Below, piece after piece: positions 1,793-26,939 of a DNA stretch of 34,535 nucleotides. A model generated the notes under the pieces. It worked only from the letters and a program-made list of their open reading frames with translations, ran no database searches and was not told where the DNA came from. The stretch is taken from positions 1 through 34,535 of the forward strand of contig DATIGQ010000199.1 of the NCBI GenBank assembly GCA_035454605.1. The letters run 5' to 3'. Position 1 is the first letter of the stretch. Each line of letters begins with the position of its first letter. Source of the DNA: Terriglobales bacterium (lineage in GTDB: Bacteria > Acidobacteriota > Terriglobia > Terriglobales > Acidobacteriaceae). Position numbers and translations under genes: made by a program.

Positions 1793-1802
1793 GACCCACC
1801 TC

Positions 1803-4338: not shown

Positions 4339-4845
4339 ATGCTTATGAAACCTACAGCTTGGGCGTGGATGGGAGCGTTGGGAGCGGGTCTGGTCCTCGC
4401 TCTGAGCTTTGTTCACCCCGGCGGAACAGTCAAGACGGTGGAACCTACGGGTCCACTGCTCGCCACAGGGAAGGCCGATCCGCAAGTGCTGGCAACTTTT
4501 CAGCGTAGCTGCCAGGATTGCCACTCCAACAACACGCGGTGGCCTGCCTACAGCTACGTTGCGCCCGTCTCCTGGCTGATCGAGCACGACGTACGGTCCG
4601 GGCGCAAACGACTGAACCTCTCACAATGGGCGGAATACGGCGAGGGCGGGCAGCCACACCTGCTTTCCGCAATCGCTCGGATGATGGAAAGCGATCAAAT
4701 GCCGCCTCCTGCTTACATCTTTCTTCATCCCGAAGCCAGGCTTTCAGACTCCGACCGGCAAAGGATCATCGAATGGACGCGGCAGGAATTGAGCCGACTT
4801 GACGCGGCGTCGGAGCCCCGCTCCGTTCATTGGTCTTCGCATTAG
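4339..4845 (+). CDS. Haem_bd family single-heme protein
   Basis: The 168-residue protein has an N-terminal hydrophobic signal or anchor (about residues 9-25), then the heme-c motif CQDCH at 58-62 followed by SNNTRWPAYSYVAPVSWL. That is the hallmark of the Haem_bd family. A conserved QMPPPAY...LHPEARLSDSDRQRIIEW block follows. The role is probably periplasmic electron transfer or heme sensing; no partner is proven. The last roughly nine codons and the TAG stop lie inside the direct repeat shared with the tRNA-Ser locus, so the native C-terminus may have been replaced at that junction. The gene is 49 bases after the cupredoxin, with GGAG upstream of the ATG at 4339. Confidence 0.85.
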   Translation: MLMKPTAWAWMGALGAGLVLALSFVHPGGTVKTVEPTGPLLATGKADPQVLATFQRSCQDCHSNNTRWPAYSYVAPVSWLIEHDVRSGRKRLNLSQWAEYGEGGQPHLLSAIARMMESDQMPPPAYIFLHPEARLSDSDRQRIIEWTRQELSRLDAASEPRSVHWSSH

Positions 4846-4921
4846 GCGCAGGCATTCCCTTCGTCCGACCCGGTACTCCTAGAGTGCGCAAAGCCCCCGC
4901 GGGGGGATGCGTGAGCGGCTG
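4818..4921 (+). repeat. left direct repeat of the tRNA-Ser upstream region
   Basis: This 104-base stretch aligns without gaps to 26767-26870 at a constant offset of 21949. I count 12 mismatches, about 88% identity, with 30 identical bases in a row at 4840-4869. The right copy runs into an intact tRNA-Ser; this one loses similarity just after the 5' part of the tRNA. The repeat also covers the 3' end of the Haem_bd gene. Both copies are in the same orientation and bracket the carbohydrate locus. Confidence 0.9.
4901..4921 (+). pseudogene. 5' fragment of a tRNA-Ser gene
   Basis: GGGGGGATGCGTGAGCGGCTG matches the first 21 bases of the intact tRNA-Ser(UGA) at 26850 with two substitutions, one of them in the acceptor strand. 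After that the sequence diverges, and no anticodon arm, variable arm, T-loop or 3' acceptor strand can be found. It is therefore a non-functional remnant. Confidence 0.75.
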
Positions 4922-4944
4922 GTGTTTGGCCACCCCTTCGTCTT

Positions 4945-4974
4945 TTGACATTTCCAGCACGGTTACCCTAGCCT
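4945..4974 (+). promoter_or_regulatory. candidate promoter of the GH31 gene
   Basis: A perfect -35 TTGACA at 4945-4950 is followed by an 18-base spacer and a weak -10 TAGCCT at 4969-4974, just upstream of the GAGGGAG ribosome binding site. It lies immediately after the tRNA remnant, so it belongs to the island side of the junction. Confidence 0.4.
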
Positions 4975-5005
4975 GCCACAGCGGTTCTCCGCCGAGGGAG
5001 AAATC

Positions 5006-7441
5006 ATGAAACGGGCTGGAGCGTTTCTGCTATTCGTTCCCTTACTCGCGTTGCTCGGGCAGCCAGCCGAGGCGCAAGGGGTTGCGCAGGCCAGCCGCGT
5101 GACGGGAGTGCGCGTTCTTTCCAGCGGAGTCGAGCTGGCCGCAGGGAAAGCACGATTGCGCGTCGTGGCGGTGGGTGAGTCGGTCATCCGCGTGCGGCTG
5201 GCGCCGGAAGGCGTGTTCGCCAAGGAGCACTCGTGGGCGGTCCTGCCCGAAGCGCTGGCATCGGATGCAAAGGTGAAGGTCACGCAATCCAGAGAGGCGG
5301 TGGAGTTTGCGACCGCCCGAGTACGAGTGCGCGTGATGCGAGCGCCGCTGCGTGTAGTGTTCCTTGACGCGGAGGGGAAGGTGATCTTGGAGGATGCCCC
5401 GGCGCGGCCGACGGCGTGGGGGCCCTGGGGCTTTCGGGTGTGGAAGTCCATGCCGGAGGACGAACACTACTTCGGGCTGGGCGAGAAAGCGGGCACCATG
5501 GATCGCCGCAACCAGGCCTTCACCATGTGGAACACGGATGCGTTCGGCTGGCAGGAATCGACCGATCCGCTTTACAAGAGCATCCCCTTCTTCCTGGCGA
5601 TGCGGCACGGCCGGGCCTATGGCCTGTTCCTGGACAATCCCTGGCGTACAAGCTTCGATTTCGGCAAGGAATCGCGGGACGCCTATTCGTTCGGGTCGGA
5701 CGGCGGCGAGCTGGACTATTTCTTTTTTTATGGGCCGCATCCGAAACAGGTTGTGGAAGGGTTCGCGGCGCTGACGGGACGCACGCCGCTGCCACCGCTC
5801 TGGGCGCTGGGTTACCAGCAATGCCGCTACAGCTACTTCCCGGAAGCGCGGGTGAGGGAAATCGCGCGCACCTTCCGGGATAAACAGATTCCCGCCGATG
5901 TCATCTACCTGGACATCGATTACCAGGACGGCAACCGGCCGTTCACCATCGACCGGCAGAAGTTCCCCAATTTCGAAGGCATGATCAAAGACCTGGGTTC
6001 GCAGGGGTTCAAGGTCATCGCCATCACCGATCTGCATCTGAAAAAGGAGGCGGGCTACGCGCCGTACGATCAGGGCCACGCCGGCGACCACTTCGTGAAG
6101 AATCCCGACGGTTCGGAATACGTGGGGGTGGTGTGGCCGGGGGAGAGCGTGTTTCCGGAGTTCACGCTTTCCCGCAGCCGGGAATGGTGGGGAACGCTCT
6201 ACAAGGATTTCGTGGGCATGGGCATTCGCGGTTTCTGGAACGACATGAATGAACCTGCCATCTTCCAGCGCGACGACAAGACCATGCCGCTCGCCACCCG
6301 GCATCGCATGGATGATGGAATCGTCCTCGACCATCGCGCGGTGCACAACGTTTTCGGGATGCTGAACGCGCGCGCCACCTATGAGGGCCTGCGGCGGTTG
6401 CGCCCGGAGGAGCGCCCGTTCGTTCTCACGCGTGCGGCCTATGCCGGGGCCTGGCGCTATACCGCGACTTGGACGGGAGACAACAGCAGCTCCTGGAACC
6501 ATTTCCGTCTCACCATGCCCACGCTCCTGAGCTTGGGTATCTCTGGCTATGCGGTGGTGGGCAACGACGTGGGCGGCTTCTGGGGCGATCCGTCGCCCGA
6601 CCTGCTGACGCGCTGGACCGAACTCGGTGTGTTCACTCCCATCTTCCGTAATCACACCACCAAAGGAACCCGGGACCAGGAACCCTGGGTGCACGGAGCC
6701 AAGCACGAAGCCATCCGGAGGCGCTACATCGAGCTGCGTTACCGCCTGCTGCCTTACGTCTACACGGTGACCGAGGAGGCGTCCCGAACGGGTCTGCCCA
6801 TCATGCGACCGATGTTCCTCGAGTACCCGGATGAAGCGGACTTCTACAAGAAGGACTACTACCAGTTCCTGTTCGGGCGCGACCTGCTGGTGGCGCCTCC
6901 GGCCTACGAATTCCTGAGCACGTATGACGTGAAGCTGCCCGCCGGCGACTGGTTTGACTACTGGACCGGACAACGCGTCGCCGGGGGAAAAGTGATCCAG
7001 GTGACTCCCCCGCTGGACGCACTGCCGGTGTACGTGCGTGCCGGCGCCATCCTGCCGCAGCAACCCGTAGTGCAGCACACGGACGAGATCCCCAACGGCC
7101 CACTGGAGGTGCGCGTCTATCCGGGTTCCGATTGCCGCGGCTCGCTGTACGCGGACGACGGAAAGACCTTTGACTATACCCGCGGAGAGTATTACCGAGT
7201 GGAGCACACCTGTACGGTGGCTCCCGATTCCCTGCGCGTGAACCTGGGCGCCCCGCAAGGCAGCTTTGCACCCTGGTGGAAGAACCTGCAGATCGAAGTC
7301 TTCGGCGTGGACCGCCGTCCTCGCCAGGTCGCACTGGGCGAATCGCCGCTGCACGATTGGAATTACGATCCCGCGCAGCGCAAGCTTGTGCTGTTCGTCT
7401 CCGAGACCGGCCGGACCCAGGAGCTTCGCGTGACCTACTAG
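5006..7441 (+). CDS. exported GH31 alpha-glucosidase
   Basis: The 811-residue enzyme starts with a signal peptide (cleavage near AEAQG, about residues 22-26). It continues with an N-terminal beta-sandwich (roughly 30-240), a catalytic (beta/alpha)8 barrel and C-terminal beta domains. The GH31 nucleophile signature FWNDMNEP places the nucleophile at D413, and the acid/base is D492 in WTGDNSSSW. LPPLWALGYQQCRYSY is a typical GH31 barrel entry. It should release glucose from the non-reducing ends of alpha-glucosides in the periplasm or outside; alpha-1,4 preference is inferred from the genes around it. The ATG at 5006 has GAGGGAG upstream. It is the first gene of the carbohydrate locus and converges on the debranching-like gene with only nine bases between the stops. 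Confidence 0.93.
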   Translation: MKRAGAFLLFVPLLALLGQPAEAQGVAQASRVTGVRVLSSGVELAAGKARLRVVAVGESVIRVRLAPEGVFAKEHSWAVLPEALASDAKVKVTQSREAVEFATARVRVRVMRAPLRVVFLDAEGKVILEDAPARPTAWGPWGFRVWKSMPEDEHYFGLGEKAGTMDRRNQAFTMWNTDAFGWQESTDPLYKSIPFFLAMRHGRAYGLFLDNPWRTSFDFGKESRDAYSFGSDGGELDYFFFYGPHPKQVVEGFAALTGRTPLPPLWALGYQQCRYSYFPEARVREIARTFRDKQIPADVIYLDIDYQDGNRPFTIDRQKFPNFEGMIKDLGSQGFKVIAITDLHLKKEAGYAPYDQGHAGDHFVKNPDGSEYVGVVWPGESVFPEFTLSRSREWWGTLYKDFVGMGIRGFWNDMNEPAIFQRDDKTMPLATRHRMDDGIVLDHRAVHNVFGMLNARATYEGLRRLRPEERPFVLTRAAYAGAWRYTATWTGDNSSSWNHFRLTMPTLLSLGISGYAVVGNDVGGFWGDPSPDLLTRWTELGVFTPIFRNHTTKGTRDQEPWVHGAKHEAIRRRYIELRYRLLPYVYTVTEEASRTGLPIMRPMFLEYPDEADFYKKDYYQFLFGRDLLVAPPAYEFLSTYDVKLPAGDWFDYWTGQRVAGGKVIQVTPPLDALPVYVRAGAILPQQPVVQHTDEIPNGPLEVRVYPGSDCRGSLYADDGKTFDYTRGEYYRVEHTCTVAPDSLRVNLGAPQGSFAPWWKNLQIEVFGVDRRPRQVALGESPLHDWNYDPAQRKLVLFVSETGRTQELRVTY

Positions 7442-7450
7442 GCGTACGGT

Positions 7451-10075
7451 CTAGCGCGCGGCGAATGTGAGTTGGACGCGCTGCGGTTGAAAGCTCGCGG
7501 CATCCCCGGCCGGGAAGCGGACGCGCAAGAGGTAGCGTCCGGTGCCGTCCTTCACCAGTTCCGCTCCCTCGACGCGCGTGATGGCGGCTCCGCCCAGCGT
7601 GGAGAGCTCGTGCACGCTCGCCGCAGGCCCCGTGAGGTCCAGGACCAGGCGGTCGCGCGCTTCATTCCAACTCTCCGCAACCAGCTTCGGGTTGCCGCTC
7701 ATGTCGCCGAGGGGTGGCAAAGTGAACGGCACCTCCACGCCGAATTCATTCCGATAGCGGATGCGTAAGGTGTTGTGCCCGCCGTACACAGGAAAGCGCG
7801 CCACCACGTGCTGATCCACAGCCCCGGCTTCGCGGCGGAAGGGCAAGGGACGGTCGTTCAGCTCCACCGCCGCAATCTCTGCGCGCAGGCTGAACGCAGG
7901 CGCGACCTCGATCTCGAGTGGGCTGCTCCCGGTGCGTGACAGGTCGAGCGTGATGGCGCCTTCGGAGCGTTGGTAGCGGAGATCGAGCCGGGCCTCGCCC
8001 ACCTGCAGGTGACGGATCTCGAACCCTTCCCAACTGGCGGGCACGTGCGGGGCGAATCGCAGGCGACCGTTGAGCGCGTCCGCTTCCAGTCCCAGCAGCC
8101 CGCGCAGCAGGGGGCTGACGATCATGGCCGCCGACCAGATCTGGTGCGGCGTGCTGGTGGAGAGGGGTTCGTAGAAGGACCCGGATAGAACCTCAGTCAC
8201 GTGTCCGGCGGCGCCGTCCAGCGCCAGCAGCGAGTTGGCCGTCAGGTTGGCCAGCGCGGGATGGCTGCGGTGATATCGGTACTCGCCCACCGAGGCCCAG
8301 CCCGTGAACAGCGGCCACACGCTGCCGAAATGGTAGCCCGCCGGGCTGTAGAGAGGGTCGCGATCGGAGAGGATGCGCATCCCCCAATCGGGGGCGTGGT
8401 CGGACTGCGCGAGCTGGCTGATCATGGCGTCGGCCTTTTCCGCATCCAGCAGGTCCCACCACATGGGAACGGTGGCAAGAACGCTGGCCACGTCCACAGG
8501 GCGGTCCTGCCGGTCGAGGGCAAAGGCATAGCGCTGCTTCTCGGGAATCCAGAAGGTTTGGTTTAACGCCGCCCGGCCGACCGCGAAGGCGCCCTCCATT
8601 TCATCTGCGACCTCAGGCTTTCCAACCTGCCGCGCCAGGCGCCCCAGCGACCGCAGGGCCTGCACCCCCAGTCCGCTCTGGTAGAGCTCGGTCTTCACCG
8701 GCAAGAGCGGACCGCCTTCCACCCAGCCGTGCCCCACGTTGTCGTTCTTTGCGAATCGCCGCTCATCCCCCGTGGAGCGCAGGAACTCGTACGCCTTCCA
8801 GATAGCGGTCCAGTGATCTTGGGCGAAGCTCGCGTCCCCGCTGCGCGTCACGTAGTCGTCCGCTGCGATGAGGAACAGCGGCGTGGCATCGGCGGACGCG
8901 TAGGCGTAGGGGTAGTCCTGGAACCAGGGGACCAGACTGGCGCTTTGCGCAATCTCGTGCGGCATCTTGCCGTCCGCGCGCTGGTACTGGATGAGGAATT
9001 CGAGCGCCGTGCGCGCGGTCAGGAAGTCACCGGCGGAGTTGAGGGCGAATGCGGTCCACAGCGAATCGCGTCCGAAGAACCAGGCAAAACCCGGACGAGC
9101 CTCGCTTCCCGAATGACCGTAGCCGGCGATCAGTCCGGTTCCCAGGTACGGATTCTTTACCAGCCCCTGGATGGTGCTGATGCGCGCCCAGTCGTAGGCC
9201 TGCTCCAGTCGCGCATCGGGCAAGCGGACCGCGACCGTCTGGTCCAGGTACTGGGCGTAGAAGCGGGCGGCCTCCTCACGCAGGCCTCCATGATCCTCCA
9301 TCAACCGGCGATACACCTTTTCGGCAGCTTCCGCGCTTTCGGTCGAGGCGGCGATGACGATGCTCTGCGTATGTCTTCCGGGCCCGACGCGCCCCAGCCG
9401 GAACGAAGCCCGTGCGGAGGACGCGTAGTGGCTGCGGAAAGTGGGCCGGGCATCGGTCGCGCCCGGCGTACCCACCAGCCCGAAGAAACGGCGCTGCTCC
9501 TCGCCGAAACTGAAGGCGCCCAGCCTGTCGTCCCAATTCGCATACGTGGCTCCCAGGGCTGCCGGCCACATGAGTTGGAAATCGCGCTCGAAACCGACTT
9601 CCACGTCCAGCGGTTCCAGCGTCTCGATCTCAACCAGAATCACGGCGCCGGGCTCCTCCAGCGGAACAAAGAACGTTTCCCGCACAGAAAACGAGTCGCC
9701 GGCGTAGAGCAGAGTGGTGGATTCGGGACGAGCGATGAGCGTGCGGGCCAGTGCGGCTGCCGGAATCCTCCGTTGCCCGACGTGGAAAGCCAGTTCAAGA
9801 TTGCGCAACAGCTTCAGCGGATAAACCCAGGCCTCCGCGCGCCCGTCTTCATAACCGAGAACGGCGGCGCGCCGGCCGACGGCGCTCAGAAACTCCCAGG
9901 GCCGCGCGGGCCGTGAGAGCTCCATGTCGCGCGGCCCCTCCTGAACCGCGGGCACAGGCGGAACGGACGTTTCCTGAGATGAACTTGTCTGCGGCGCCAG
10001 GCTGCCGAGCAGGAGAACAACGAACAGGCCGCTGCCCATCCGGTTTCGCAAGTGGAATCGTGATCCGCTGATCAT
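7451..10075 (-). CDS. exported amylo-alpha-1,6-glucosidase / debranching-like enzyme
   Basis: The 874-residue protein has an N-terminal hydrophobic signal (about residues 14-28), a beta-rich N-terminal domain (about 60-280) and an (alpha/alpha)6 toroid from about 285. WFFGRDSLW at 332-340 contains the conserved FGRDS motif of glycogen-debranching-type glucosidases, where D337 is the likely catalytic carboxylate. GKMPHEI at 369-375 and ADATPLFL follow as expected. A long C-terminal beta region (about 690-874) may bind glycan. It probably removes alpha-1,6-linked glucose from limit dextrins, but family members vary, so the linkage is inferred. The start is uncertain: the ATG at 10075 lacks a strong ribosome binding site, and M13 would give an equally good signal peptide. 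It is divergent from the first CRTAC1 gene. Confidence 0.8.
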   Translation of the reverse strand: MISGSRFHLRNRMGSGLFVVLLLGSLAPQTSSSQETSVPPVPAVQEGPRDMELSRPARPWEFLSAVGRRAAVLGYEDGRAEAWVYPLKLLRNLELAFHVGQRRIPAAALARTLIARPESTTLLYAGDSFSVRETFFVPLEEPGAVILVEIETLEPLDVEVGFERDFQLMWPAALGATYANWDDRLGAFSFGEEQRRFFGLVGTPGATDARPTFRSHYASSARASFRLGRVGPGRHTQSIVIAASTESAEAAEKVYRRLMEDHGGLREEAARFYAQYLDQTVAVRLPDARLEQAYDWARISTIQGLVKNPYLGTGLIAGYGHSGSEARPGFAWFFGRDSLWTAFALNSAGDFLTARTALEFLIQYQRADGKMPHEIAQSASLVPWFQDYPYAYASADATPLFLIAADDYVTRSGDASFAQDHWTAIWKAYEFLRSTGDERRFAKNDNVGHGWVEGGPLLPVKTELYQSGLGVQALRSLGRLARQVGKPEVADEMEGAFAVGRAALNQTFWIPEKQRYAFALDRQDRPVDVASVLATVPMWWDLLDAEKADAMISQLAQSDHAPDWGMRILSDRDPLYSPAGYHFGSVWPLFTGWASVGEYRYHRSHPALANLTANSLLALDGAAGHVTEVLSGSFYEPLSTSTPHQIWSAAMIVSPLLRGLLGLEADALNGRLRFAPHVPASWEGFEIRHLQVGEARLDLRYQRSEGAITLDLSRTGSSPLEIEVAPAFSLRAEIAAVELNDRPLPFRREAGAVDQHVVARFPVYGGHNTLRIRYRNEFGVEVPFTLPPLGDMSGNPKLVAESWNEARDRLVLDLTGPAASVHELSTLGGAAITRVEGAELVKDGTGRYLLRVRFPAGDAASFQPQRVQLTFAAR

Positions 10076-10123
10076 GATGCGCCGTGAACTCTGCGCTGCG
10101 GACGCGTTGACCGCAACGACCAG

Positions 10124-10152
10124 TTGCAGCCGGTTCGCACTTCCAATATAAA
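10124..10152 (+). promoter_or_regulatory. candidate promoter of the first CRTAC1 gene
   Basis: TTGCAG at 10124-10129, a 17-base spacer, and TATAAA at 10147-10152 form a good sigma70 promoter in the divergent region. The predicted RNA start near 10159 means that an apparent TTG start at 10124 is the -35 box and not a start codon, so the coding sequence must begin further downstream. Confidence 0.55.
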
Positions 10153-10207
10153 GAGCGCGAAAGCAGCGCGAATTCTAGCACGACGCTCCCGAGGATTATT
10201 TACCTCC

Positions 10208-12022
10208 TTGTCCTTCAGCCGCCGCAGATTCCTGAGTTCGTTGAGCCGCTCGCTGCTGGTGTTGCCGCTCGAGGAAGTGTTCGCGATGGCGTTCTCGCCG
10301 GTCCGCCAGAGCGCCGGGACGAACCTGGCAACGCCCGCACCGGAAAGCGAGCTCGGAGTTTCCTTCCTCAATGTGGCCAAAGAATCGGGCCTGAACGCCA
10401 AGACGTTGTTCGGAAGCGAGCACAAGAACAAGTACCTGTTGGAAACGACCGGCTGCGGAGTCGCCTTTTACGATTACGACAATGACGGCTGGCTGGACAT
10501 TTTTCTGGTCAACGGTTGGCGACTGGAGGGCTTCCCGGCCGGCCAGGAACCCACGTGCCACCTGTTCAAGAACAACCGCGACGGCACCTTCACCGATGTG
10601 ACGCTGAAAGCCGGCGTGGCGCATTCGGGTTGGGGACAGGGCGTCTGCATCGGCGATTACGACAATGACGGTTACGAGGATCTTTTCGTCGCCTACTACG
10701 GGCACAACGTCCTCTTCCACAACAACGGCGACGGAACCTTTACCGACGTAACCGCCAAGGCCGGAGTGGGTGGCAAGGGAATGCGCTGGAACACGGGATG
10801 CGCGTTTGTGGACTACGACCGCGACGGCTGGCTCGACCTGTTCGTGGCCAACTACATTGATTTGGACCTGGCGACCGCGCCCGTGCCCGAGTCCGGTCCT
10901 TGCCTCTACAAGGGCGTGATGGTGGCCTGCGGCCCTCCGGGCTTGAGGGGCGGCAAGAACATCCTTTTCCGCAACAACGGCGACGGGACGTTCACGGATG
11001 TTTCCGAGAAGTCCGGTATCACCGAGGCCATGGGAACCTACGGCCTGGGCGTGCTCACCCTGGACTTCAACGATGACGGCTGGCCGGATATCTACGTCGC
11101 CAACGACTCGACGGCCAGCGCGCTCTACATGAATCAGAAGAATGGCAAATTCACGGATACCGCCATCGCCTCGGGTTGCGCCTACAGCGTGGACGGCAAG
11201 CCGCAAGCGGGCATGGGGGTCTCCGCCGGCGACTATGACCTGGATGGACGCCTCGACATCGTGAAGACCAACTTCGCGGGCGACACTCCTTCGCTCTATC
11301 GCAACCGCGGCAACGCGACCTGCGAGGACACCACCTATGCCTCGGGCCTGGGCGCCAACACCCGCTATCTGGGTTGGGGCTGCGGCTTCTTCGACATGGA
11401 TAACGACGGCTGGGTCGACATCCTGCTGATCAACGGCCACGTCTATCCGGAAGTTGAGCAGCTCAAGACGGAAGCGGGATATGCGCAGCGCAAGCTGCTC
11501 TACCGCAACCTGCGCAACGGCCGCTTCGAGGATGTTTCCATGAAGGCCGGCCCGGGCATCAGTACGCCCATCGCGGGCCGCGGCTGCGCCTTCGGCGACT
11601 TCGACAACGATGGCGACCTGGATGTGATCATCAATCCCGTCAACGACTATCCCGAATTGCTGCGTTGCGACCTTGCGCTCGAGCACAACTGGATCAAAGT
11701 GCGGACCATCGGTACGAAATCCAATCGCAGCGGTATCGGGGCGCGCCTGAGGTGTGTCACTCCGATGCCCGGAGGAAAGCTGCACAGCCAGTTGGATGAA
11801 GTGCGCAGCGGCGGAAGCTACTTTTCGCAAAACGATCTGCGCGTGCACTTCGGACTCGGCCCGGCGCAGAAGGTCGAGCTGCTCGAAATCCGCTGGCCCA
11901 GCGGTCTGGTGGAAACGCTCAAGGACCTTGCCGTCAACCAACTGATCTACGTGAAGGAAGGTGAAGGCATCATCCGCACGGTGAAGTTCCCGCCGTCCAA
12001 GAGCAAGTCGACGCAGCGCTAG
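10208..12022 (+). CDS. CRTAC1-type FG-GAP/ASPIC repeat protein, Tat-exported
   Basis: I start at the TTG at 10208, giving 604 residues that begin with a twin-arginine signal (SFSRRRFLSSLSRSL). GAGGA lies about 13 bases upstream, a little far. A run of FG-GAP/VCBS repeats follows, each with a calcium-binding DxDxDG loop such as DYDNDGWLDIF, DYDRDGWLDLF, DFNDDGWPDIY and DFDNDGDLDV; these form a beta-propeller. The C-terminal part (RSGIGARLRC, then LDEVRSGGSYFSQNDLRVHFGLG) is the ASPIC/UnbV domain. The family has no known reaction. Surface adhesion or glycan binding is plausible from the fold and the neighbouring receptor and glycosidases. It meets the second CRTAC1 gene tail to tail with overlapping stops. 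Confidence 0.85.
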   Translation: MSFSRRRFLSSLSRSLLVLPLEEVFAMAFSPVRQSAGTNLATPAPESELGVSFLNVAKESGLNAKTLFGSEHKNKYLLETTGCGVAFYDYDNDGWLDIFLVNGWRLEGFPAGQEPTCHLFKNNRDGTFTDVTLKAGVAHSGWGQGVCIGDYDNDGYEDLFVAYYGHNVLFHNNGDGTFTDVTAKAGVGGKGMRWNTGCAFVDYDRDGWLDLFVANYIDLDLATAPVPESGPCLYKGVMVACGPPGLRGGKNILFRNNGDGTFTDVSEKSGITEAMGTYGLGVLTLDFNDDGWPDIYVANDSTASALYMNQKNGKFTDTAIASGCAYSVDGKPQAGMGVSAGDYDLDGRLDIVKTNFAGDTPSLYRNRGNATCEDTTYASGLGANTRYLGWGCGFFDMDNDGWVDILLINGHVYPEVEQLKTEAGYAQRKLLYRNLRNGRFEDVSMKAGPGISTPIAGRGCAFGDFDNDGDLDVIINPVNDYPELLRCDLALEHNWIKVRTIGTKSNRSGIGARLRCVTPMPGGKLHSQLDEVRSGGSYFSQNDLRVHFGLGPAQKVELLEIRWPSGLVETLKDLAVNQLIYVKEGEGIIRTVKFPPSKSKSTQR

Positions 12023-13794
12023 GGTCTTTGGGGTGGAGCCGTGACGGCCGGCTGCTTCGTTTCAGGCGGCTCCACACGTTTGCCGGTTCCTTCCTTCAGA
12101 AGGTGGATGGCGTCGACCCCGAAGCCCTCGAATCGCTCGCGCAACCCGCTGGGCCAGCGCACCTCCAGCCCGTCCACGCGCGTGGCCGCGCCCAGCCCGA
12201 AGTGCACCCGCTGATCGTTGCTGGAATTGTAGCTGGACCCGCTGCGGACTTCGTCGACCAGCACGCGGTTCCCGGCCTTGAGCGTGAGCCGGGCGCCGAT
12301 TCCATCGCGATTCGATCGGCTGCCCGCCAGCTTGAAGGCCACCCAGTGATTCGCTGAGCGGACCTCATTGACCAGCAGGCTGGGCTTGCCGTGCATGTTG
12401 CTGATGACGGCGGACATCCGGCCGTCGTTCCACAGGTCTCCGACCGCCAATCCGCGGGCTGAACTGGGCGTGTTGATTCCCGGCCCGGCGCTGCGTGAGA
12501 TGTCGCGGAACGTGCCGTTCCCCTGGTTCTGATAGAGCACCTTGGGCTCGCTGTAGGAGCTGCCGAGGTTGTACGTGTCTACTTCCGGGTAGACGTGCCC
12601 ATTCACCAGCAGCAGGTCGGGCCAGCCGTCGTTGTCGAAGTCGAAAAACATCGTGCCCCAGCCCAGGTACTTCGTATTCAGACCGAGGCCTGCGGCATAC
12701 GTGACGTCGTTGAAGGTGCCGTTCCCGTTGTTTCGGTAGAGGGTCGAGGTGTCGTCGGAAAAGTTGGACTTGAACAGGTCGAGGTGGCCGTCTCCGTTGT
12801 AATCGGCGACGGTCGAGCCCATGCCCGCCTGCTCGCGCCCGTCTTCGTTGTAGGCGGCCCCGGCGATCACTGCCACGTCGCTGAACGTGCCATCGCCCTG
12901 GTTGCGGTAGAGAATGCTAGGAGTGCTGTCGCAGGCGATGTAGATGTCCGTCCATCCGTCGTCGTCATAGTCGAGGGTCGAGACGCTGAAACAGTAATGA
13001 CCCGGCGTCTTGTTGACGCCGCTGCGCTCGCTCACGTCCTCGAACGTCCCGTCGCCGCGATTGTGATAGAGGACGTTCGATTCTCTCTGCAGCCCTCTCG
13101 GCCCGCACATCACCGGGATGCTCTTCCACACGCAGTTGGCGGTCTGGCCGGGAACGGGTGCCGTGGCGAGATCGAAGTACACGTAATGGGCGACGATGAG
13201 GTCGAGCTTCCCGTCCTTGTCGTAATCCAGGAAGGCGCAGCCTGTTCCCCACTGACTCTCTGTGCCCCCGACGCCGGCTTTCTCGCTGACCTGTTCGAAC
13301 ACGCCGCCACGGTTGCGGTATAGGCGATTCTGTCCGTAATACGTGACGTAGAGGTCCTGCCAGCCGTCGTTGTCGTAGTCGCCCACGCAGGCTCCCTGGC
13401 CCCAGCCAGCCGCTTCCAGACCGGCGGCTTCGGTCACGTCGGCGAACTTCCCGTTGTGCAGGTTCCGGTAAAGCCGGTTGGAGGGCGTGCTTTGCGGGCC
13501 GGTTCCCTTCAGCGTCCGGCCGTTCACGAAGAAAATATCCAGCCAGCCGTCGTTGTCGTAGTCCAGCAGCGCCACACCCGTGCCGGTGGTCTCGATGATG
13601 TACTTCTTGGTGTCTTTTCCCCCGTAAATGATCTCCATGTCCAGCCCCGCCGTTTGCCCGACGTCCACGAAGTGCGCGACTGGCTCTTCCCTCGTTGCCG
13701 GACCGGGTTGCCGCTGACCGGGAGCCGCCCCGGCCAGGAAGGTGGCCATGGCCAGGGCGATCCCAAACAGAGAGAGGAACGAACGCGTATTCAG
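12019..13794 (-). CDS. CRTAC1-type FG-GAP/ASPIC repeat protein, Sec-exported
   Basis: The ATG at 13749 gives 576 residues but begins inside a hydrophobic segment. Extending 15 codons to an in-frame CTG at 13794 yields NTRSFLSLFGIALA before that ATG, completing a good Sec signal peptide. GGAG lies nine bases before the CTG, and no ATG, GTG or TTG is in frame nearby. The mature part has FG-GAP repeats with calcium loops (DYDNDGWLDIF, DYDNDGWQDLY, DYDKDGKLDLI, DYNGDGHLDLF, DFDNDGWPDLL) and a C-terminal ASPIC domain (RDGIGARLTL, VDEVRSGSSYNSSNDQRVHFGLG). It is a diverged paralog of the preceding gene in opposite orientation, and its stop overlaps that gene's stop in the palindrome CTAG. Function is unknown. 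Confidence 0.82.
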   Translation of the reverse strand: MNTRSFLSLFGIALAMATFLAGAAPGQRQPGPATREEPVAHFVDVGQTAGLDMEIIYGGKDTKKYIIETTGTGVALLDYDNDGWLDIFFVNGRTLKGTGPQSTPSNRLYRNLHNGKFADVTEAAGLEAAGWGQGACVGDYDNDGWQDLYVTYYGQNRLYRNRGGVFEQVSEKAGVGGTESQWGTGCAFLDYDKDGKLDLIVAHYVYFDLATAPVPGQTANCVWKSIPVMCGPRGLQRESNVLYHNRGDGTFEDVSERSGVNKTPGHYCFSVSTLDYDDDGWTDIYIACDSTPSILYRNQGDGTFSDVAVIAGAAYNEDGREQAGMGSTVADYNGDGHLDLFKSNFSDDTSTLYRNNGNGTFNDVTYAAGLGLNTKYLGWGTMFFDFDNDGWPDLLLVNGHVYPEVDTYNLGSSYSEPKVLYQNQGNGTFRDISRSAGPGINTPSSARGLAVGDLWNDGRMSAVISNMHGKPSLLVNEVRSANHWVAFKLAGSRSNRDGIGARLTLKAGNRVLVDEVRSGSSYNSSNDQRVHFGLGAATRVDGLEVRWPSGLRERFEGFGVDAIHLLKEGTGKRVEPPETKQPAVTAPPQRP

Positions 13795-13907
13795 AGCGGC
13801 TGTCTCCGAGTGGTGACGATGCTGCAGATTCCCTGCAAGAGCAGAATTGTGACATGCTTTCTGTCGGGCCGACCAGCAAAGCTGCCATGGGGTCCCGGAC
13901 TATCTAG

Positions 13908-15716: not shown

Positions 15717-15750
15717 GTTGTGACGAACGACGCTAACCTCTTGAAAAATC

Positions 15751-15779
15751 TTGACAATGGCGCGTTCAGTCGATAAGCT
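15751..15779 (+). promoter_or_regulatory. candidate promoter of the TonB-dependent receptor gene
   Basis: A perfect -35 TTGACA at 15751-15756, a 17-base spacer and a weak -10 TAAGCT at 15774-15779 precede the receptor gene. The overlapping GATAAG could serve as an alternative -10. The perfect -35 is shared with the GH31 promoter. Confidence 0.45.
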
Positions 15780-15829
15780 TTCGCGCCATCTAGAGCACCC
15801 GACCGGGTAGCTGACGTCAGGGGGAGACG

Positions 15830-18800: not shown

Positions 18801-19315
18801 GGCTGGATTACCTGATCGGCGGCTGGCAGATCAGCAGCGTGACCAACTGGAGCGGTGGCATTCCCTTTTCGGTGCGGTACGACGAATGCGGGGCGGATCG
18901 GGACACCGGCCCGTGCCGTCCTGACCTGATTGCGGGCGTTGACACTGGGGATGAAACTGGCTGGCTGCCGACCGGGGCATCGCTGACAACCAACGGATCC
19001 AACAACGGTCCCTGGCAGCGGCCGCAGGTGGGCGAGTTCGGCACGAGCGGACGCAACTCCTTCCGCGGGCCTCAGTTCTTCAACACCGACCTGTCGATCT
19101 TCAAGAACTTCACCATCACGGAGCGCGTGCGGGCCCAGTTCCGCTTCAACGCCTTCAACGTGTTTAACAAGGTCAATTGGGGTACCCCCAACGTCTTCTG
19201 GTCCGAGTTCGGTTTTGGCGGAGACAACTGCGTCGATTGCAACAAGCCCATGACCATCGACCACCACGGTGGCACCATGCGGCAGTTGCAGTTCGCTGCC
19301 AAGCTCACCTTCTAG
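15830..19315 (+). CDS. TonB-dependent outer-membrane receptor (Oar-like, carboxypeptidase-regulatory domain)
   Basis: The 1161-residue protein begins with a signal peptide (hydrophobic segment about 9-23, cleavage near RAAGQA). A carboxypeptidase-regulatory-like beta domain follows (about 30-120: GVAIDPAGAAVPGTKVTV, then TNETGNYTV, then YDVRGEAQGFK). Next come a plug domain (about 125-240) and a long outer-membrane barrel ending in the aromatic residue of KLTF. This type is frequent in acidobacteria. Its place among glucosidases and a sugar symporter suggests import of alpha-gluco-oligosaccharides driven by TonB. No TonB/ExbBD genes are in the window. GGGGAG precedes the ATG at 15830, and a strong terminator follows at 19336, so it is probably transcribed alone. 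Confidence 0.92.
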   Translation: MRVKRLSSGLLLLALICGFLLLSPKRAAGQAVFGQIYGVAIDPAGAAVPGTKVTVTSVSKGATREVTTNETGNYTVTHLIPDTYDVRGEAQGFKVFEVKGIKVFADQGAQVNINLQVGAAVETVTVTAEDVPLLKTDRADVATTFSEKTVTELPVSLGRNFTDLQLLTPGTQKLTWQHASSENPQSSTQIFINGQHFSGTSFQLDGTDNRDPILGIIVVNPTLESVTETKIATQNYDAEFGQALAAVITAQTKSGSNELHGSAYWFRHSDEQQAVDATIGVDPITGRQIADALHNQFGGTLGGPILKNKLFVFGAYEGTRDKVGRAAQLSVPTDLVRSTCLNPASLVCDLSEYTAPIFNPFTGDPGLDGVIGTPDDPGTGRTQFAGNMIPSNLLSPQAVALLSLLPSASAAGTLGNFTATGTGGFNANLFSIRTDYAATDRLHIYGRYSFAQYALSGRGAFDTDSIAVGGRGLGTNGFAGQSNTRNQSIAAGFDYSFSPSLLMDFRFGWFKYRVNVNPNGLGTTPATDAGLAGLNFGNDFTSGMPAFFIGDQGQEGGDIEFGYALADRLTRCNCPLIQNEDQFQFVNNWTKIHGNHAIKWGADIRYARNLRVPSDRHRAGELSFDRRFTSDNGTDGLGIATFLLGGVTRFTRYPPDSPTDAGERQKRWFFYGQDTWRATPKLTVNLGLRWEIYFPESVTGPEKGGFLDLDTGNIRVAGVGGISSNMDVENSFSNFAPRLGIAYQVTPKTILRMGYGRSFDIGVFGSIFGHAVTQNLPVLPIQENDSATANAQEFNLSDPGGVPGVAPPVVPSDGLIPLPDGIFQRARPNRMRLPTVDAWNITIQREITPTLSAEIAYVGNKGTHVFAGNGPAFNVNQATVVGFPTVSNNDRKLFFPLFGWTQSIDYFGNLADNNYHALQMKVEKRFSKGYQFLAHYTWSQAFNEDADYFPINPRVNYGPNDLNRRHVFVFTNLVELPFGRGRKFGNDVGRGLDYLIGGWQISSVTNWSGGIPFSVRYDECGADRDTGPCRPDLIAGVDTGDETGWLPTGASLTTNGSNNGPWQRPQVGEFGTSGRNSFRGPQFFNTDLSIFKNFTITERVRAQFRFNAFNVFNKVNWGTPNVFWSEFGFGGDNCVDCNKPMTIDHHGGTMRQLQFAAKLTF

Positions 19316-19335
19316 ACGAAAGTTGGCAACAGTCC

Positions 19336-19362
19336 AAGGGAGCCCAATCGGGCTCCCTTTTT
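19336..19362 (+). terminator. Rho-independent terminator of the receptor gene
   Basis: A perfect 10-bp stem, AAGGGAGCCC at 19336-19345 and its inverse at 19350-19359, closes a four-base loop AATC and runs into a T-tract. It ends receptor transcription 20 bases after the stop and separates it from the TPR lipoprotein gene. Confidence 0.9.
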
Positions 19363-19406
19363 GTTGCTCTCATGGCCCGCAAGGCGGACGCTATACTGGT
19401 GTGGTT

Positions 19407-20438
19407 GTGGCCTACACATCACAACGCAGGTTTCAGCCGAAAGCCTGTCTGCTCCTGGCACTGCTGTTGGTCGCCTGCAGTCTGGCCGCTTCCCAGCAGG
19501 AAACCTCCGATGCTCCGGCCGGCACCCGCACGCTGATTAAGGAAGGCAAGCTGGACGAGGCCATCGTGCGGCTGGAGGACCTCGCACGCGCCGACTCTGC
19601 CCGCCCAGGCCTTGCCCGCGAGTTAGGTGTGGCGTACTACCGCCGGGGCGAGCATGCGCGCGCCATCCCGCATCTACAGCAAGCCCTGAAGGAAGACCCT
19701 GGCGACCGGGAGGCCACGCAGCTCCTGGGGCTTTGCTACCACTTCATCGGCAGAATGGCCGACGCCATCCCGCTGCTGGAGAAGGTGCGCTCGTGGATGC
19801 CCTCCGCGAACGTGAACGCCGATTACGTACTCGGCCTTTCCTACATCCAGATCAAGGACTTCGAGCGCGCCCGCGGGGCCTTCGCGTCCATGTACGGCGT
19901 TCCGCCGGACTCGGCAGCTGCGCATCTCTTCCTGGCCCGCATGCTGCTCCGCCAGGAGTTCGATCCGGTGGCCGAAGAGAATGCGCTCAAGGCGGCGGAA
20001 CTCGACCCCAAGCTGCCGGGTGTCCACTTCCTGCTGGGCGAGCTGTATGTGTTCAAGTCCAGGATCCCGGAAGCGATTGCCGAATTCGAGAGGGAGCTCG
20101 CCCTCAACCCCGGCCACGCGGCCACCTACTACAAGCTGGCCGACGCCTACACCCGCATCCAGAAATGGGATGAGGCGCAGCGCCTGTTGCAGAACTCTAT
20201 CTGGCTCGATTCCACCGCCAGCGGGCCGTTCGTGCTGCTGGGCAAAGTGCTGATGAAGAAAGACGAGCACCAGCTTGCCCTGCGCACCTTGCAGCGCGCC
20301 GTTCAGATGGATCCCAACAATTTCGTGGCGCACCACTGGCTGGGGCAGGCTTTCCGGGCGGTGGGCAAGAATGAGGATGCCGAGCGGGAATTGCGGCTCG
20401 CCCAGGAACTGCAGTCCCAGCAGAACTCCGGCCGCTAG
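19407..20438 (+). CDS. TPR-repeat lipoprotein
   Basis: The frame is open into the receptor gene, but the useful starts are GTG at 19401 or 19407, after the terminator. From 19407 the product is 343 residues. It opens with a lipoprotein signal: QRRFQPKAC, a leucine run, then the lipobox LVAC with the lipidated cysteine at residue 24. The rest is TPR repeats (about 40-340) with recurring A-x-LG-x-Y and A-x-x-LE/LQ-A patterns. It is therefore a membrane-attached TPR protein, as are SusD-type glycan-binding lipoproteins, which share a TPR scaffold but differ in sequence. TATACT at 19392-19397 could be a -10 so close to the start that the mRNA would be nearly leaderless; no good -35 was found. It converges on the trehalase-family gene. 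Confidence 0.82.
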   Translation: MAYTSQRRFQPKACLLLALLLVACSLAASQQETSDAPAGTRTLIKEGKLDEAIVRLEDLARADSARPGLARELGVAYYRRGEHARAIPHLQQALKEDPGDREATQLLGLCYHFIGRMADAIPLLEKVRSWMPSANVNADYVLGLSYIQIKDFERARGAFASMYGVPPDSAAAHLFLARMLLRQEFDPVAEENALKAAELDPKLPGVHFLLGELYVFKSRIPEAIAEFERELALNPGHAATYYKLADAYTRIQKWDEAQRLLQNSIWLDSTASGPFVLLGKVLMKKDEHQLALRTLQRAVQMDPNNFVAHHWLGQAFRAVGKNEDAERELRLAQELQSQQNSGR

Positions 20439-20455
20439 GTAGGCGGCAACTCGGT

Positions 20456-22398: not shown

Positions 22399-22447
22399 TC
22401 CGGCTTCATGTGCAGCCCGGGGGAGGCTGCCGCCTGGACCGACTGCG

Positions 22448-24148: not shown

Positions 24149-24161
24149 GAGAAGAAAGCGC

Positions 24162-24704: not shown

Positions 24705-24730
24705 AACCGCTGCAGGACGGAGGCGCGTCC

Positions 24731-26533
24731 TTAGCGAGCGCTCCCGGCCTCCGCAATCACCACCCCGAACGGCTCTAAAGTCACGTTCCGAAGATCGATA
24801 TCCTTGGCGTCTGAGGTGCGCAGCAGCGGCTTCGCCGAACTCCCGCCAAGCTGAGTAGGACTGAACGAGACCTTCTGCGGCGAAGCTGTCATGTTCAGCA
24901 GCACGACCCCCGTCTTGTCCTTCGACTTGCGCGCGTATGCCAACACGCTGTCGCTGTCTTCGAGCAGCGGCACGTACGCTCCCTCGTAGAATGCGGGATG
25001 GCTGCGGCGCAGAGTGATGAGCTGTCGATACCAGTTCAACATCGACTTCGGATCCGAGGTCTGCGTCTCGACGTTCTTCGTCTTGTAATTCTCGTGCACC
25101 GGGAGCCAGGGCGTGGCGCCGTCGTTGAAGCCGGCATTCGCGCTCGCGTTCCATTGCATAGGGGTGCGTTCGCCGTCGCGCCCCTTTTCCTGGGGCCAAC
25201 CGCGCTGGCCGATCACGTCCTTAACGTCTTCCTTGCGCTTGGGATCGTTGTTTTCCATCGCAATCTCCTCCCCGTAGTACAGGACGGCGGTACCACGGAG
25301 GGTCAGGTACAGCGCGGCCATCACCCTGGCGATCTTGTCGTTGTTTTGCCCGTCGCCATAACGATCGATATGCCGCCGGATGTCGTGATTGCTCAGCACG
25401 TAGACCGGCCAGCCGCCTACCGGGTTGCTCTCGATCACCCTGATCTTCTCGCGGAAGGCCGCGGGCGAGAGCCGGTTGATCACGGTCAGGTTGAAGTACA
25501 TGGGCATATGCACTTCATTGTTCTTCGGCCCATAGTAGTCGGCCAGTTCTTCGGCCTTGTTGGTCCAGGTTTCGCCCACCAGCACCCGCCCGTGAAACTC
25601 ATCCACCACGCGGCGCAGCCCCTGCAATTGGGTGTGAACCTCGGGCAGCTTGCTGTCCATGACGTGTCGTTGGTTCGGATCGCCGTAGGCGTTCTTGCCG
25701 GGATCGTTCGGGTTGTCGCGAAAAGCCGGGTCCTCGAAGAGCGTGTCTACGGCGTCAAGGCGAAAGCCGTAAACGCCTTTCTTGAACCAGTAGCGCACGA
25801 CGTCGAACATTTCCTGTTCGACTTTCGGATTGCGCCAGTTCAGGTCCGGCTGCTGCGGATAAAAGAAGTGGTGATACCACTGGTCCGTCCGCGCTTCGTA
25901 GGTCCAGCCCGAGCCCCCGAACAGGGAGATCCAGTTTGTGGGCGGCTGGCCGGGACCCTGGCCGTCGCGCCACACATAGTAGTCCCGATAGGGATTGTCC
26001 CGCGATTTCTTCGACTCCTGAAACCATTTGTGCTGGTCGGAGCTGTGGTTCATCACGAAGTCGAGGATGATTTTGATGTTGCGCTTTTCTGCCTCCGCGA
26101 TCAGGCGGTCCATGTCCGCCAGCGTGCCGTATTGGGGATCGATGTCGCGATAGTCGGAAACGTCGTAGCCGAAATCGACCTGCGGGGAGGGAAAACAGGG
26201 GGTGATCCAGATCGCGTCTACTCCGAGCGCCTGCAGGTGGTCGAGGTGCTGGGTGATTCCCTTCAGATCGCCAACACCGTCATTGTCGGTGTCCGCGTAG
26301 CTGCGCGGATAGATTTCGTAGAACACGGCGCGCTTCCACCACTCGGCATCCTTGGCGAATCGGTTCGGGGGAACAGTGATCGCGGGCTTCTGAGCGATTG
26401 CGGTGGAGCGAGCGGCCGCTCGGACGGCGGGCGCTCCACCGACCTCTCTTGCGGCCGGTTGCCCCGGTGCGGCGAGGGAGCAACAGGTGATCAGGATCAG
26501 GCCGGCAATCTTGCGCAGTAGTAGCGTCCTCAT
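24731..26533 (-). CDS. exported GH13 alpha-glucosidase
   Basis: The start at 26533 is preferred because GGGGAGGG lies just upstream and a signal peptide follows (MRTLLLRKIAGLILITC). The 600-residue enzyme shows all GH13 regions: DFVMNH at 158-163, nucleophile D260 in GFRLDAVDT, acid/base E321 in VGETWT, and the stabilising D384 in LSNHD. QPDLN at 228-232 marks the oligo-1,6-glucosidase/alpha-glucosidase branch. Alanine directly after the nucleophile is more usual for alpha-1,4 than alpha-1,6 specificity, so I favour alpha-1,4-glucosidase; trehalose synthase-like activity cannot be excluded. LITCC could be a lipoprotein-like site, but it is not a good lipobox. It is the last gene of the island and reads away from the tRNA-Ser. 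Confidence 0.92.
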   Translation of the reverse strand: MRTLLLRKIAGLILITCCSLAAPGQPAAREVGGAPAVRAAARSTAIAQKPAITVPPNRFAKDAEWWKRAVFYEIYPRSYADTDNDGVGDLKGITQHLDHLQALGVDAIWITPCFPSPQVDFGYDVSDYRDIDPQYGTLADMDRLIAEAEKRNIKIILDFVMNHSSDQHKWFQESKKSRDNPYRDYYVWRDGQGPGQPPTNWISLFGGSGWTYEARTDQWYHHFFYPQQPDLNWRNPKVEQEMFDVVRYWFKKGVYGFRLDAVDTLFEDPAFRDNPNDPGKNAYGDPNQRHVMDSKLPEVHTQLQGLRRVVDEFHGRVLVGETWTNKAEELADYYGPKNNEVHMPMYFNLTVINRLSPAAFREKIRVIESNPVGGWPVYVLSNHDIRRHIDRYGDGQNNDKIARVMAALYLTLRGTAVLYYGEEIAMENNDPKRKEDVKDVIGQRGWPQEKGRDGERTPMQWNASANAGFNDGATPWLPVHENYKTKNVETQTSDPKSMLNWYRQLITLRRSHPAFYEGAYVPLLEDSDSVLAYARKSKDKTGVVLLNMTASPQKVSFSPTQLGGSSAKPLLRTSDAKDIDLRNVTLEPFGVVIAEAGSAR

Positions 26534-26766
26534 GGACCCTCCCCGTAGAGGCAATGAGTATACGGCGTGGCGTGGAGTCGGGATGGCAGTGCTGGTGGGT
26601 CGGCCTGAACCAGCGACCTGGCAACGTGATTCCGTTTCCGCCCACTGACAGCAAAGAAAATCAATCACTTGGCTCGGCGGAATCCTCAGCGCAGCGAGTC
26701 TCACGGTCCCCGTCGTCTCCTGCTCTTGGGCGGCAGGGATCGAACGGAACGCAGACCCTGCTGCAT
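26534..26766. other. gene-free stretch upstream of the GH13 gene
   Basis: No convincing gene lies here. On the minus strand TATACT (plus-strand 26557-26562) sits about 24 bases upstream of the GH13 start codon and could be its -10, but no matching -35 is present. The right side continues into the direct repeat and the tRNA-Ser gene. Confidence 0.5.
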
Positions 26767-26870
26767 CCGCTCCGCCCATTCGCCTTCACATTAGGCGCAG
26801 GCATTCCCTTCGTCCGACACGGTACTGCTAGACTGTGCAAAGCCGCCGCGGAGGGATGCGTGAGCGGTTG
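26767..26870 (+). repeat. right direct repeat: tRNA-Ser upstream region and 5' end
   Basis: This is the counterpart of 4818-4921, ungapped, with 12 differences in 104 bases. It holds 83 bases upstream of the tRNA, including a possible -10 TAGACT at 26829-26834, plus the first 21 bases of the tRNA itself. A 30-base block at 26789-26818 is identical in both copies, suggesting it is the older promoter or upstream region of the tRNA gene. Confidence 0.9.
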
Positions 26871-26939
26871 AAACGGGCGGTCTTGAAAACCGCTAGAGTC
26901 GAAAGGCTCTCCTGGGTTCGAATCCCAGTCCCTCCGCCA
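26850..26939 (+). tRNA. tRNA-Ser (anticodon UGA)
   Basis: The acceptor strand GGAGGGA at 26850 pairs with TCCCTCC near the 3' end, followed by discriminator G and an encoded CCA ending at 26939. The anticodon stem GCGGT/ACCGC encloses the loop CTTGAAA with anticodon TGA. A long variable arm (TAGAGTCGAAAGGCTCT region) typical of serine tRNAs and a GGTTCGAATCC T-arm are present. It reads UCA and related codons. Confidence 0.96.

What the first reader, a model, noticed from the sequence alone, without database searches (positions are those of the whole stretch)
4818..26939. A 22-kb sugar-utilisation island bracketed by direct repeats of a tRNA-Ser locus
Seen: 4818-4921 and 26767-26870 align ungapped at a constant offset with about 88% identity, in the same orientation. 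The right copy enters an intact tRNA-Ser(UGA); the left copy contains only the first 21 bases of the tRNA. All carbohydrate genes lie between them, starting 85 bases after the left copy and ending about 230 bases before the right copy. Known: tRNA genes are common integration sites, but islands usually duplicate the 3' end of the tRNA and carry an integrase. Here the 5' end and upstream region are duplicated and no integrase is present. Inference: an old insertion, or a duplication followed by decay, acting at the 5' side of the tRNA.
Basis: partly seen in the sequence, partly recalled or inferred. Interest (0 to 1): 0.75.

Follow-up and report, generated by a model that had tools for sequence, protein, structure and literature searches.

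The report
Relocated sugar cluster beside tRNA-Ser gene
A resident block of sugar-digestion genes appears to have moved a few tens of kilobases along its own bacterial chromosome, probably by tandem duplication and partial loss, leaving a broken copy of a tRNA gene's front end at the seam; it does not look like an imported genomic island.

Summary
Window 4818-4921 and 26767-26870 are ungapped direct repeats (12 of 104 mismatches); no third copy was found in the genome. The right copy runs into an intact tRNA-Ser(UGA); the left stops after 21 nt of it. The repeat also begins inside the last codons of the Haem_bd gene, so it copies a 'Haem_bd end / intergenic / tRNA 5' end' stretch.

The island reading fails. 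The core of the enclosed sugar cluster recurs in 11 of 11 outgroup loci examined, its divergence from the one same-genus relative (G001) is no greater than the right flank's, and no tyrosine-integrase match falls on these contigs. In G001 the cluster lies elsewhere, between block D and tRNA-Met (after undoing a G001 inversion), 24-52 kb upstream of tRNA-Ser; there the window's genome has no cluster.

So the cluster was relocated within the chromosome. The repeat copies are closer to each other than the two species are, which places the event in the window's lineage. Orientation, short distance and the 5' tRNA remnant fit tandem duplication followed by reciprocal loss, as known from mitochondria. 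That mechanism is inferred; a one-step insertion with a 104-bp target duplication is not excluded.

The parts
4339..4845 (+). Haem_bd gene; its last eight codons and stop lie inside the left repeat copy
   Evidence: Pfam PF14376 1.4e-39; homologue C-termini
4818..4921 (+). left repeat copy: Haem_bd 3' end + intergenic + tRNA-Ser nt 1-21 (remnant)
   Evidence: no RNA family hit
4901..4921 (+). tRNA-Ser 5' fragment, broken off after nt 21
4922..5005 (+). region upstream of GH31; similarity to G001 begins at 4964 in the search, perhaps some 20 nt earlier in an end-free alignment
5006..20438 (.). sugar cluster part C: GH31, MGH1-like GH, ASPIC1, ASPIC2, TPR1, TonB-like receptor, TPR2; collinear with G001 C26:140.1-124.6 kb at 84-86% DNA identity
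20456..24695 (.). sugar cluster part B1: trehalase, SSF transporter, short ORF; G001 C26:111.66-115.9 kb (inverted there together with block B2)
24731..26533 (-). alpha-amylase; in the same stretch as MGH1 in 9 of 11 outgroup loci; no match in G001
26767..26870 (+). right repeat copy, running into the intact tRNA
26850..26939 (+). intact tRNA-Ser(UGA)
   Evidence: ARAGORN; Rfam tRNA 53.9 bits
27023..28384 (+). MASE1-GGDEF gene; right flank collinear with G001 next to its tRNA-Ser
1..4289 (.). left flank (DinB-like ORF, TetR-like ORF, two P460-type proteins, DUF417, DUF4142, cupredoxin); no DNA match in G001. Names of the first two ORFs and of the second P460-type protein (1178-1792) are recalled from sequence, not from a call

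Best explanation
The feature is the scar of an intrachromosomal relocation of a resident sugar-utilisation cluster, most likely by tandem duplication followed by reciprocal loss. Proposed ancestor, all co-oriented: D - [GH31...TPR2 - trehalase - SSF - amylase] - tRNA-Met - kdsB...coaD (B2) - A - [DinB...Haem_bd] - tRNA-Ser - GGDEF (kdsB, coaD and DinB are names recalled from sequence). Step 1 (inferred): a tandem duplication joined tRNA-Ser nt 21 to the DNA just upstream of GH31, making the joint at 4921/4922. Step 2 (outcome shown, mechanism inferred): the first cluster copy was lost, leaving D near tRNA-Met on contig C48. Step 3 (inferred): the second copy lost everything from tRNA-Met to the last codons of Haem_bd, so the amylase now abuts a Haem_bd-end / intergenic stub that leads into the intact tRNA. 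What remains is the cluster in a new place between two 104-bp direct repeats. Shown: the different locations in the two species, the cluster-free D/tRNA-Met site in G000, the tRNA-Ser site without cluster in G001, the repeat content and its lower divergence. Not shown: the tandem intermediate and the ancestral order itself.
For: (1) In G001 the cluster is on contig C26 at 111.66-115.9 and 124.6-140.2 kb, with tRNA-Ser at 87.6-87.7 kb on the same contig. (2) G000 contig C48 runs D - UspA-like gene (name recalled) - tRNA-Met - kdsB without the cluster. (3) The block-A end joins the coaD end of B2 in G000 (C44) and the same two genes are neighbours in 7 of 20 outgroup kdsB loci fetched; trehalase is convergent with TPR2 in outgroup G014 as in the window (1 of 11 loci, the only one where both were seen). 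So G001's inversion of B1-B2 is derived, and undoing it puts the cluster between D and tRNA-Met in the same orientation as in the window. (4) Outside its 21 tRNA bases the repeat differs at 10 of 83 positions, while four-fold sites differ by 28-49% between the two species in 13 genes, so the duplication probably post-dates the split. (5) The repeat contains the Haem_bd end. (6) Source and target lie roughly 37 kb apart in the inferred ancestor, co-oriented. (7) No tyrosine-integrase match falls on C199 or on G001 C26.
Against: No degraded second copy of tRNA-Met was confirmed in the 233 bp before the right repeat: a 23-nt resemblance to the tRNA-Met T arm (7 of 300 shuffles reached it; one of ten comparisons) was not supported by the tRNA covariance model. 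No cluster remnant above chance level was found at the D/tRNA-Met site. Only one same-genus genome was available. Outgroups do not show the cluster at D/tRNA-Met, and in outgroup G022 a GH31 (57% identity over 782 aa), with distant relatives of the receptor, amylase and SSF (25-33%), lies within about 12 kb of tRNA-Ser(UGA), which could hint at an old sugar-gene/tRNA-Ser neighbourhood, although MGH1, ASPIC, TPR and trehalase labels are absent there. The order A - left flank - tRNA-Ser in G000 depends on joining contigs C134 and C199, inferred from a split secreted-protein reading frame. The final structure does not separate duplication-loss from a single insertion with a 104-bp target duplication.
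Confidence: 0.55

Rival explanations
1. One-step relocation: the cluster was cut out of the D/tRNA-Met site and inserted upstream of tRNA-Ser at a staggered break, so that 104 bp of target were duplicated, with no tandem intermediate.
For: Gives the same final structure, and the Haem_bd-end + tRNA-5' content of the repeat is what a target duplication would hold. No larger remnants were confirmed.
Against: Needs a separate clean excision; 104 bp is far longer than transposase target duplications (recalled, no call); same orientation within about 37 kb of 3.29 Mb would be a coincidence (about 1% by a rough estimate made after the fact, own arithmetic).
Confidence: 0.22
2. G000-like order is ancestral, G001 moved the cluster to tRNA-Met, and the repeat is an unrelated or older partial tRNA-Ser duplication.
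For: In none of 11 outgroup loci is the cluster next to orthologues of D, B2 or A (weak 33-37% hits to one A protein in two loci and a 34% hit to the sigma-like protein in one were taken as paralogues), so outgroups do not fix its ancestral place. In outgroup G022 a GH31 of 57% identity lies about 6 kb from tRNA-Ser(UGA).
Against: The repeat exactly brackets the cluster and is less diverged than the species (10 of 83 versus 28-49% differences), unless gene conversion kept the copies alike. The G022 neighbourhood lacks the other cluster orthologues and has no copy of the 84 bases before the tRNA.
Confidence: 0.13
3. Classical integrative genomic island imported at tRNA-Ser, integrase since lost.
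For: tRNA-adjacent direct repeats; tRNA-Ser site without cluster in G001.
Against: No integrase match on these contigs; 5' rather than 3' end of the tRNA duplicated; cluster core is family-wide, divergence from G001 no greater than the flank's, GC similar to the right flank, cluster present in G001 elsewhere.
Confidence: 0.06
4. Assembly artefact: a chimeric contig joined at the repeat.
For: G000 is in 222 contigs; no reads were available.
Against: The longest identical run between the two copies is 30 bp (4840-4869, from the mismatch list); a simple exchange between the repeats would leave the cluster without a chromosomal place, since C48 is contiguous across D/tRNA-Met.
Confidence: 0.04

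Closest known systems
Tandem duplication-random loss (TDRL) rearrangements of mitochondrial genomes (e.g. PMC4223735, passages seen)
   Same: Gene order changed, with partial or pseudogene copies, tRNA genes among them, left behind and no recombinase
   Different: Here a bacterial chromosome and a 20-kb block; the duplicated intermediate is not observed
tRNA-integrated genomic islands (recalled)
   Same: Direct repeats that include part of a tRNA gene bracket a gene block, with a relative lacking the block at that tRNA
   Different: No integrase match, 5' end rather than 3' end duplicated, content present elsewhere in the sister species
Spontaneous duplications and deletions in bacterial populations (PMC3411829, abstract seen)
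   Same: Supplies both event types needed, at high frequency in Salmonella
Family-wide sugar cluster around the MGH1-like hydrolase
   Same: MGH1-like GH and ASPIC1 in 11 of 11, amylase in 9, ASPIC2 in 8 of 11 outgroup loci
   Different: GH31, SSF, trehalase, TPR and receptor orthologues were seen in only 1-3 of 11 fetched stretches; a tRNA beside the cluster was seen only in the two members of this genus

Membership tests
Integrase-borne tRNA genomic island | Site-specific recombinase gene in or beside the element | tested here: not met
   PF00589 matches lie on G000 C35, C55, C114 and on G001 C1, C2, C15, C20; none on C199 or C26. Serine recombinases were not searched by family; none appeared in the Pfam scans of 20 window ORFs
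Integrase-borne tRNA genomic island | 3' end of the tRNA regenerated or duplicated at the junction | tested here: not met
   nt 1-21 plus 83 upstream bases are duplicated
Integrase-borne tRNA genomic island | Sporadic, foreign content | tested here: not met
   Cluster core in 11 of 11 outgroup loci (loci were picked for holding the MGH1-like gene, which 164 of 298 genomes of the order match at E<=1e-60); G001 divergence no greater than the right flank's
Tandem duplication-loss relocation | Block missing from its former site in the same genome | tested here: met
   C48 D/tRNA-Met without cluster; that this is the former site rests on G001 and on the repeat's low divergence
Tandem duplication-loss relocation | Order and orientation compatible with one local tandem duplication | tested here: met
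   Block map after undoing the derived G001 inversion; contig joins C134/C44 and C134/C199 are inferred
Tandem duplication-loss relocation | Remnants of both duplicate copies | tested here: inconclusive
   The 104-bp repeat is one such remnant; no others confirmed
Tandem duplication-loss relocation | Observed duplicated intermediate in a relative | not testable with these tools
   Only one other genome of the genus appeared in the searches; the genome-contig scan gave no close relative, but that tool may leave out records near the window's genome

The most novel reading that the evidence does not exclude
A resident sugar-utilisation block moves between tRNA genes without any dedicated recombinase: it abuts tRNA-Met in one species and tRNA-Ser in the other, with tRNA 5' ends serving as preferred breakpoints of duplication.
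Probability: 0.08. Interest if true: 0.6.

Novelty: new member of a known kind. Interest (0 to 1): 0.36.

Why it matters
It shows how a tRNA-flanked 'island' with direct repeats can arise from internal rearrangement alone. Island callers that rely on tRNA plus repeats would misread it as acquired DNA. It is also a datable candidate for duplication-loss gene-order change in a bacterial chromosome, with a tRNA 5' stub as the marker. My literature searches listed no paper that I recognised as a bacterial TDRL case; they cover open-licence papers only, and one search showed 15 of 129.

Tried and rejected
Integrase-mediated island: rejected on integrase, tRNA end, conservation and divergence. Dispersed repeat: rejected, two places only. 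Left copy as a known RNA: no hit. Left copy as a promoter for GH31: no sigma-70-like site met the scan threshold in 4780-5020 or in 26520-26960, so the scan does not find the tRNA's own promoter either and is uninformative; a shared TAGAxT near the tRNA start is only read by eye. Second tRNA-Met remnant before the right repeat: marginal by shuffles (7 and 9 of 300), not supported by Rfam. A 26-nt resemblance to DNA upstream of G001's tRNA-Ser (2 of 300 shuffles, one of ten comparisons) was not pursued. Cluster remnants at the D/tRNA-Met site: five blastn matches of 17-19 nt at E 0.08-0.29 and one blastx match at E 0.19, taken as chance. Inverted repeats at the G001 inversion breakpoints: best 14 nt at E 0.18.

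tRNA-Ser loci of other genera: of 18 fetched, none carries the GGDEF gene or the start of block A as a labelled neighbour; 5 carry some cluster-like label (receptor 27-34% in three, ASPIC 42-47% in two), and one of these, G022, a GH31 at 57%. I followed G022 over 80 kb after the report was first held back; it lowered my best explanation from 0.58 to 0.55 and raised the 'G000-like ancestral' rival from 0.10 to 0.13.

Rows dropped by my scripts: one search left out L001-L003 (the window itself); one search printed blastn matches over 60 nt and tblastn matches over 45% identity only; searches used E<=1e-20 (1e-10 in 72), query proteins over 120 aa from G001, and the best label per place. Outgroup cluster loci were 11 of 39 near-full-length matches (47-57% identity) printed; kdsB loci were 20 of the 54 genomes with a match.

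Literature (accepted searches): searches listed mitochondrial papers, 59 none, 60 one mycobacterial genome paper, 61 eight papers, mostly genome papers, 64 six papers naming tycheposons, 65 fifteen papers on rearrangement and related topics, several bacterial. PMC3411829 abstract and PMC4223735 passages were seen; all others as listings only.
Full report
Observation. The two copies, 4818-4921 and 26767-26870, align without gaps at offset 21,949 with 12 mismatches: 5 of 28 in the Haem_bd end, 5 of 55 between the genes, 2 of 21 in the tRNA. A search of the window's own assembly (3,287,330 bases, 222 contigs) with the left copy finds these two places and no third at E<=1e-3. The right copy leads into tRNA-Ser(UGA), 26850-26939, the only tRNA ARAGORN reports in the window. 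The left copy stops after nt 21. The repeat starts within the Haem_bd ORF. In an alignment of 13 homologues (L052-L064) the proteins end 0 to 11 columns before the window protein's last residue; one of them (L058) has a stop inside the aligned part. The tails are not conserved in sequence, so that the window gene's stop in the repeat is its original one is inferred from length. On that reading the repeat is a copy of a once contiguous Haem_bd end - intergenic - tRNA start.

What lies between. Pfam names GH31, an MGH1-like hydrolase, two ASPIC/UnbV proteins, two TPR proteins, a CarboxypepD_reg/beta-barrel receptor, trehalase, an SSF transporter and an alpha-amylase. The MGH1-like protein matches in 164 of 298 genomes of the order at E<=1e-60, many of them at 31-38% identity and probably paralogues. 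I took stretches around 11 of the 39 near-full-length matches at 47-57% identity. ASPIC1 is beside it in 11 of 11, amylase is in the stretch in 9 of 11, ASPIC2 in 8; TPR1 and the receptor in 3 each, SSF in 2, GH31, trehalase and TPR2 in 1 each (several stretches end at contig ends). So the core, not the full set, is shown to be family-wide. ARAGORN reports no tRNA in the 19 loci scanned, which cover these stretches except one 261-base piece.

Where it lies in the sister species. Of 60 relatives searched besides the window's own genome, one (G001) is of the same genus. On its contig C26 the tRNA-Ser - GGDEF - hydrolase - CCP - DUF4440 flank is collinear with the window (79-82% DNA identity), but the sugar cluster is 24-52 kb away: GH31 to TPR2 at 140.1-124.6 kb and trehalase-SSF at 111.7-115.9 kb, 84-87% identical to the window. 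The window's left flank 1-4817 has no counterpart in G001 apart from a distant Haem_bd paralogue on C24. No amylase match was found in G001 at E<=1e-3 (run without a positive control).

Where those G001 neighbours lie in the window's genome. G001 block D (141.9-161 kb) continues on G000 contig C48 into a UspA-like gene, tRNA-Met and kdsB, with no cluster between. Contig C44 joins G001 111.658 kb to 124.588 kb, and the window joins 124.613 to 111.660 kb: the two genomes differ by an inversion of the trehalase-SSF-tRNA-Met-kdsB...coaD stretch. In 20 outgroup kdsB loci fetched, coaD is followed by the block-A gene (G001 109941-111005), in the G000 arrangement, in 7 (L140, L141, L144, L145, L148, L152, L157); in 7 others coaD is seen without that gene in the stretch (L143, L149, L150, L151, L153, L154, L155; most of them end within about 3 kb of it); in 6 coaD itself is not seen. 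None of the 20 shows the G001 arrangement of coaD beside TPR2. Outgroup G014 has trehalase convergent with TPR2 as in the window. The inversion is therefore derived in G001. Undoing it places the cluster between D and tRNA-Met, upstream of tRNA-Ser and in the same orientation as in the window.

Direction and age. The outgroup cluster loci do not place the cluster at either site, so direction rests on the repeat. It differs at 10 of 83 positions outside the tRNA bases; four-fold degenerate sites differ by 28-38% between G000 and G001 in nine cluster genes and 31-49% in four right-flank genes. The repeat is thus probably younger than the split, unless gene conversion or constraint on the tRNA's upstream region has kept it alike, and the move belongs to the window's lineage. 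The cluster genes are on average slightly closer to G001 than the four flank genes are; that is not the signature of import from outside the genus, but does not exclude exchange between close relatives. A result on the other side: in outgroup G022 the tRNA-Ser(UGA) has a GH31 of 57% identity (782 aa) about 6 kb away, with distant relatives of the receptor (25-33%), amylase (26%) and SSF (29%) around it, though no MGH1, ASPIC, TPR or trehalase label over 80 kb and no copy of the 84 bases before the tRNA. Whether this GH31 is the orthologue was not tested by a tree. For it I lowered the best explanation slightly.

Mechanism. Contig C134 carries block A down to G001 87.836 kb and then, at its end, the first 19 codons of what looks by eye like a secreted protein. 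The window opens inside a protein whose homologues have about 40 further N-terminal residues. I infer that C134 precedes the window, so the order was A - left flank - Haem_bd - tRNA-Ser. From there one tandem duplication with its joint at tRNA nt 21 / upstream of GH31, then loss of the first cluster copy and of everything between amylase and the Haem_bd end in the second, gives the present order and the 104-bp repeat. Estimated source-target distance is about 37 kb (8.6 kb B2 + 23.8 kb A + about 5 kb left flank, from the block map). No further remnants confirm it, and a one-step insertion with a 104-bp target duplication would look the same.

Comparison. Island features were tested and not met: no tyrosine-integrase match on the contigs, wrong end of the tRNA, non-foreign content. 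GC of the cluster (0.60-0.68 per kb) resembles the right flank (0.57-0.67); the left flank is 0.58-0.61. The process resembles mitochondrial TDRL (PMC4223735, passages) and uses event types that are common in bacterial populations (PMC3411829, abstract). My searches for bacterial TDRL cases listed mitochondrial, eukaryote and general bacterial rearrangement papers; that is no proof of absence.

Verdict. A real, well-defined scar with a good comparative explanation; ordinary in kind (chromosomal rearrangement), useful as a warning against calling every tRNA-flanked repeat-bounded block an island.

Noticed in passing
G001 C26:111659-124600 (L047): A derived inversion of trehalase-SSF-tRNA-Met-kdsB...coaD in the sister species, with breakpoints at 111,658/111,660 and 124,588/124,613 and no clear inverted repeats there.
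   Followed up: partly
window 1-4817: The left flank (cupredoxin, Haem_bd, P460-type proteins, DUF417, DUF4142) has no DNA match in the sister species and is slightly lower in GC (0.58-0.61) than the rest; it, rather than the sugar cluster, may be the acquired part.
   Followed up: partly
G022 C9:33666-53159 (L173, L189): In another genus of the family the tRNA-Ser(UGA) sits among other carbohydrate-type genes: a GH31 (57%), receptor-like, amylase-like and SSF-like genes (25-33%), with genes of G001 block 61-66 kb some 20-28 kb away.
   Followed up: partly
G000 C48:35440-36300 (L085) versus G001 C26:140300-141900 (L048): At the D edge the two species carry different genes: a UspA-like gene in G000, a sigma-factor-like/anti-sigma-like pair in G001 (names recalled from sequence).
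   Followed up: no
window 26940-27022 versus G001 C26:87000-87630 (L033): Between tRNA-Ser and GGDEF, G001 has about 550 further bases with a YjbQ-like reading frame (name recalled) that are missing in the window.
   Followed up: no
window 10124-13749: The two neighbouring ASPIC/UnbV genes are convergent paralogues; each matches the other's G001 counterpart at about 50% identity.
   Followed up: no
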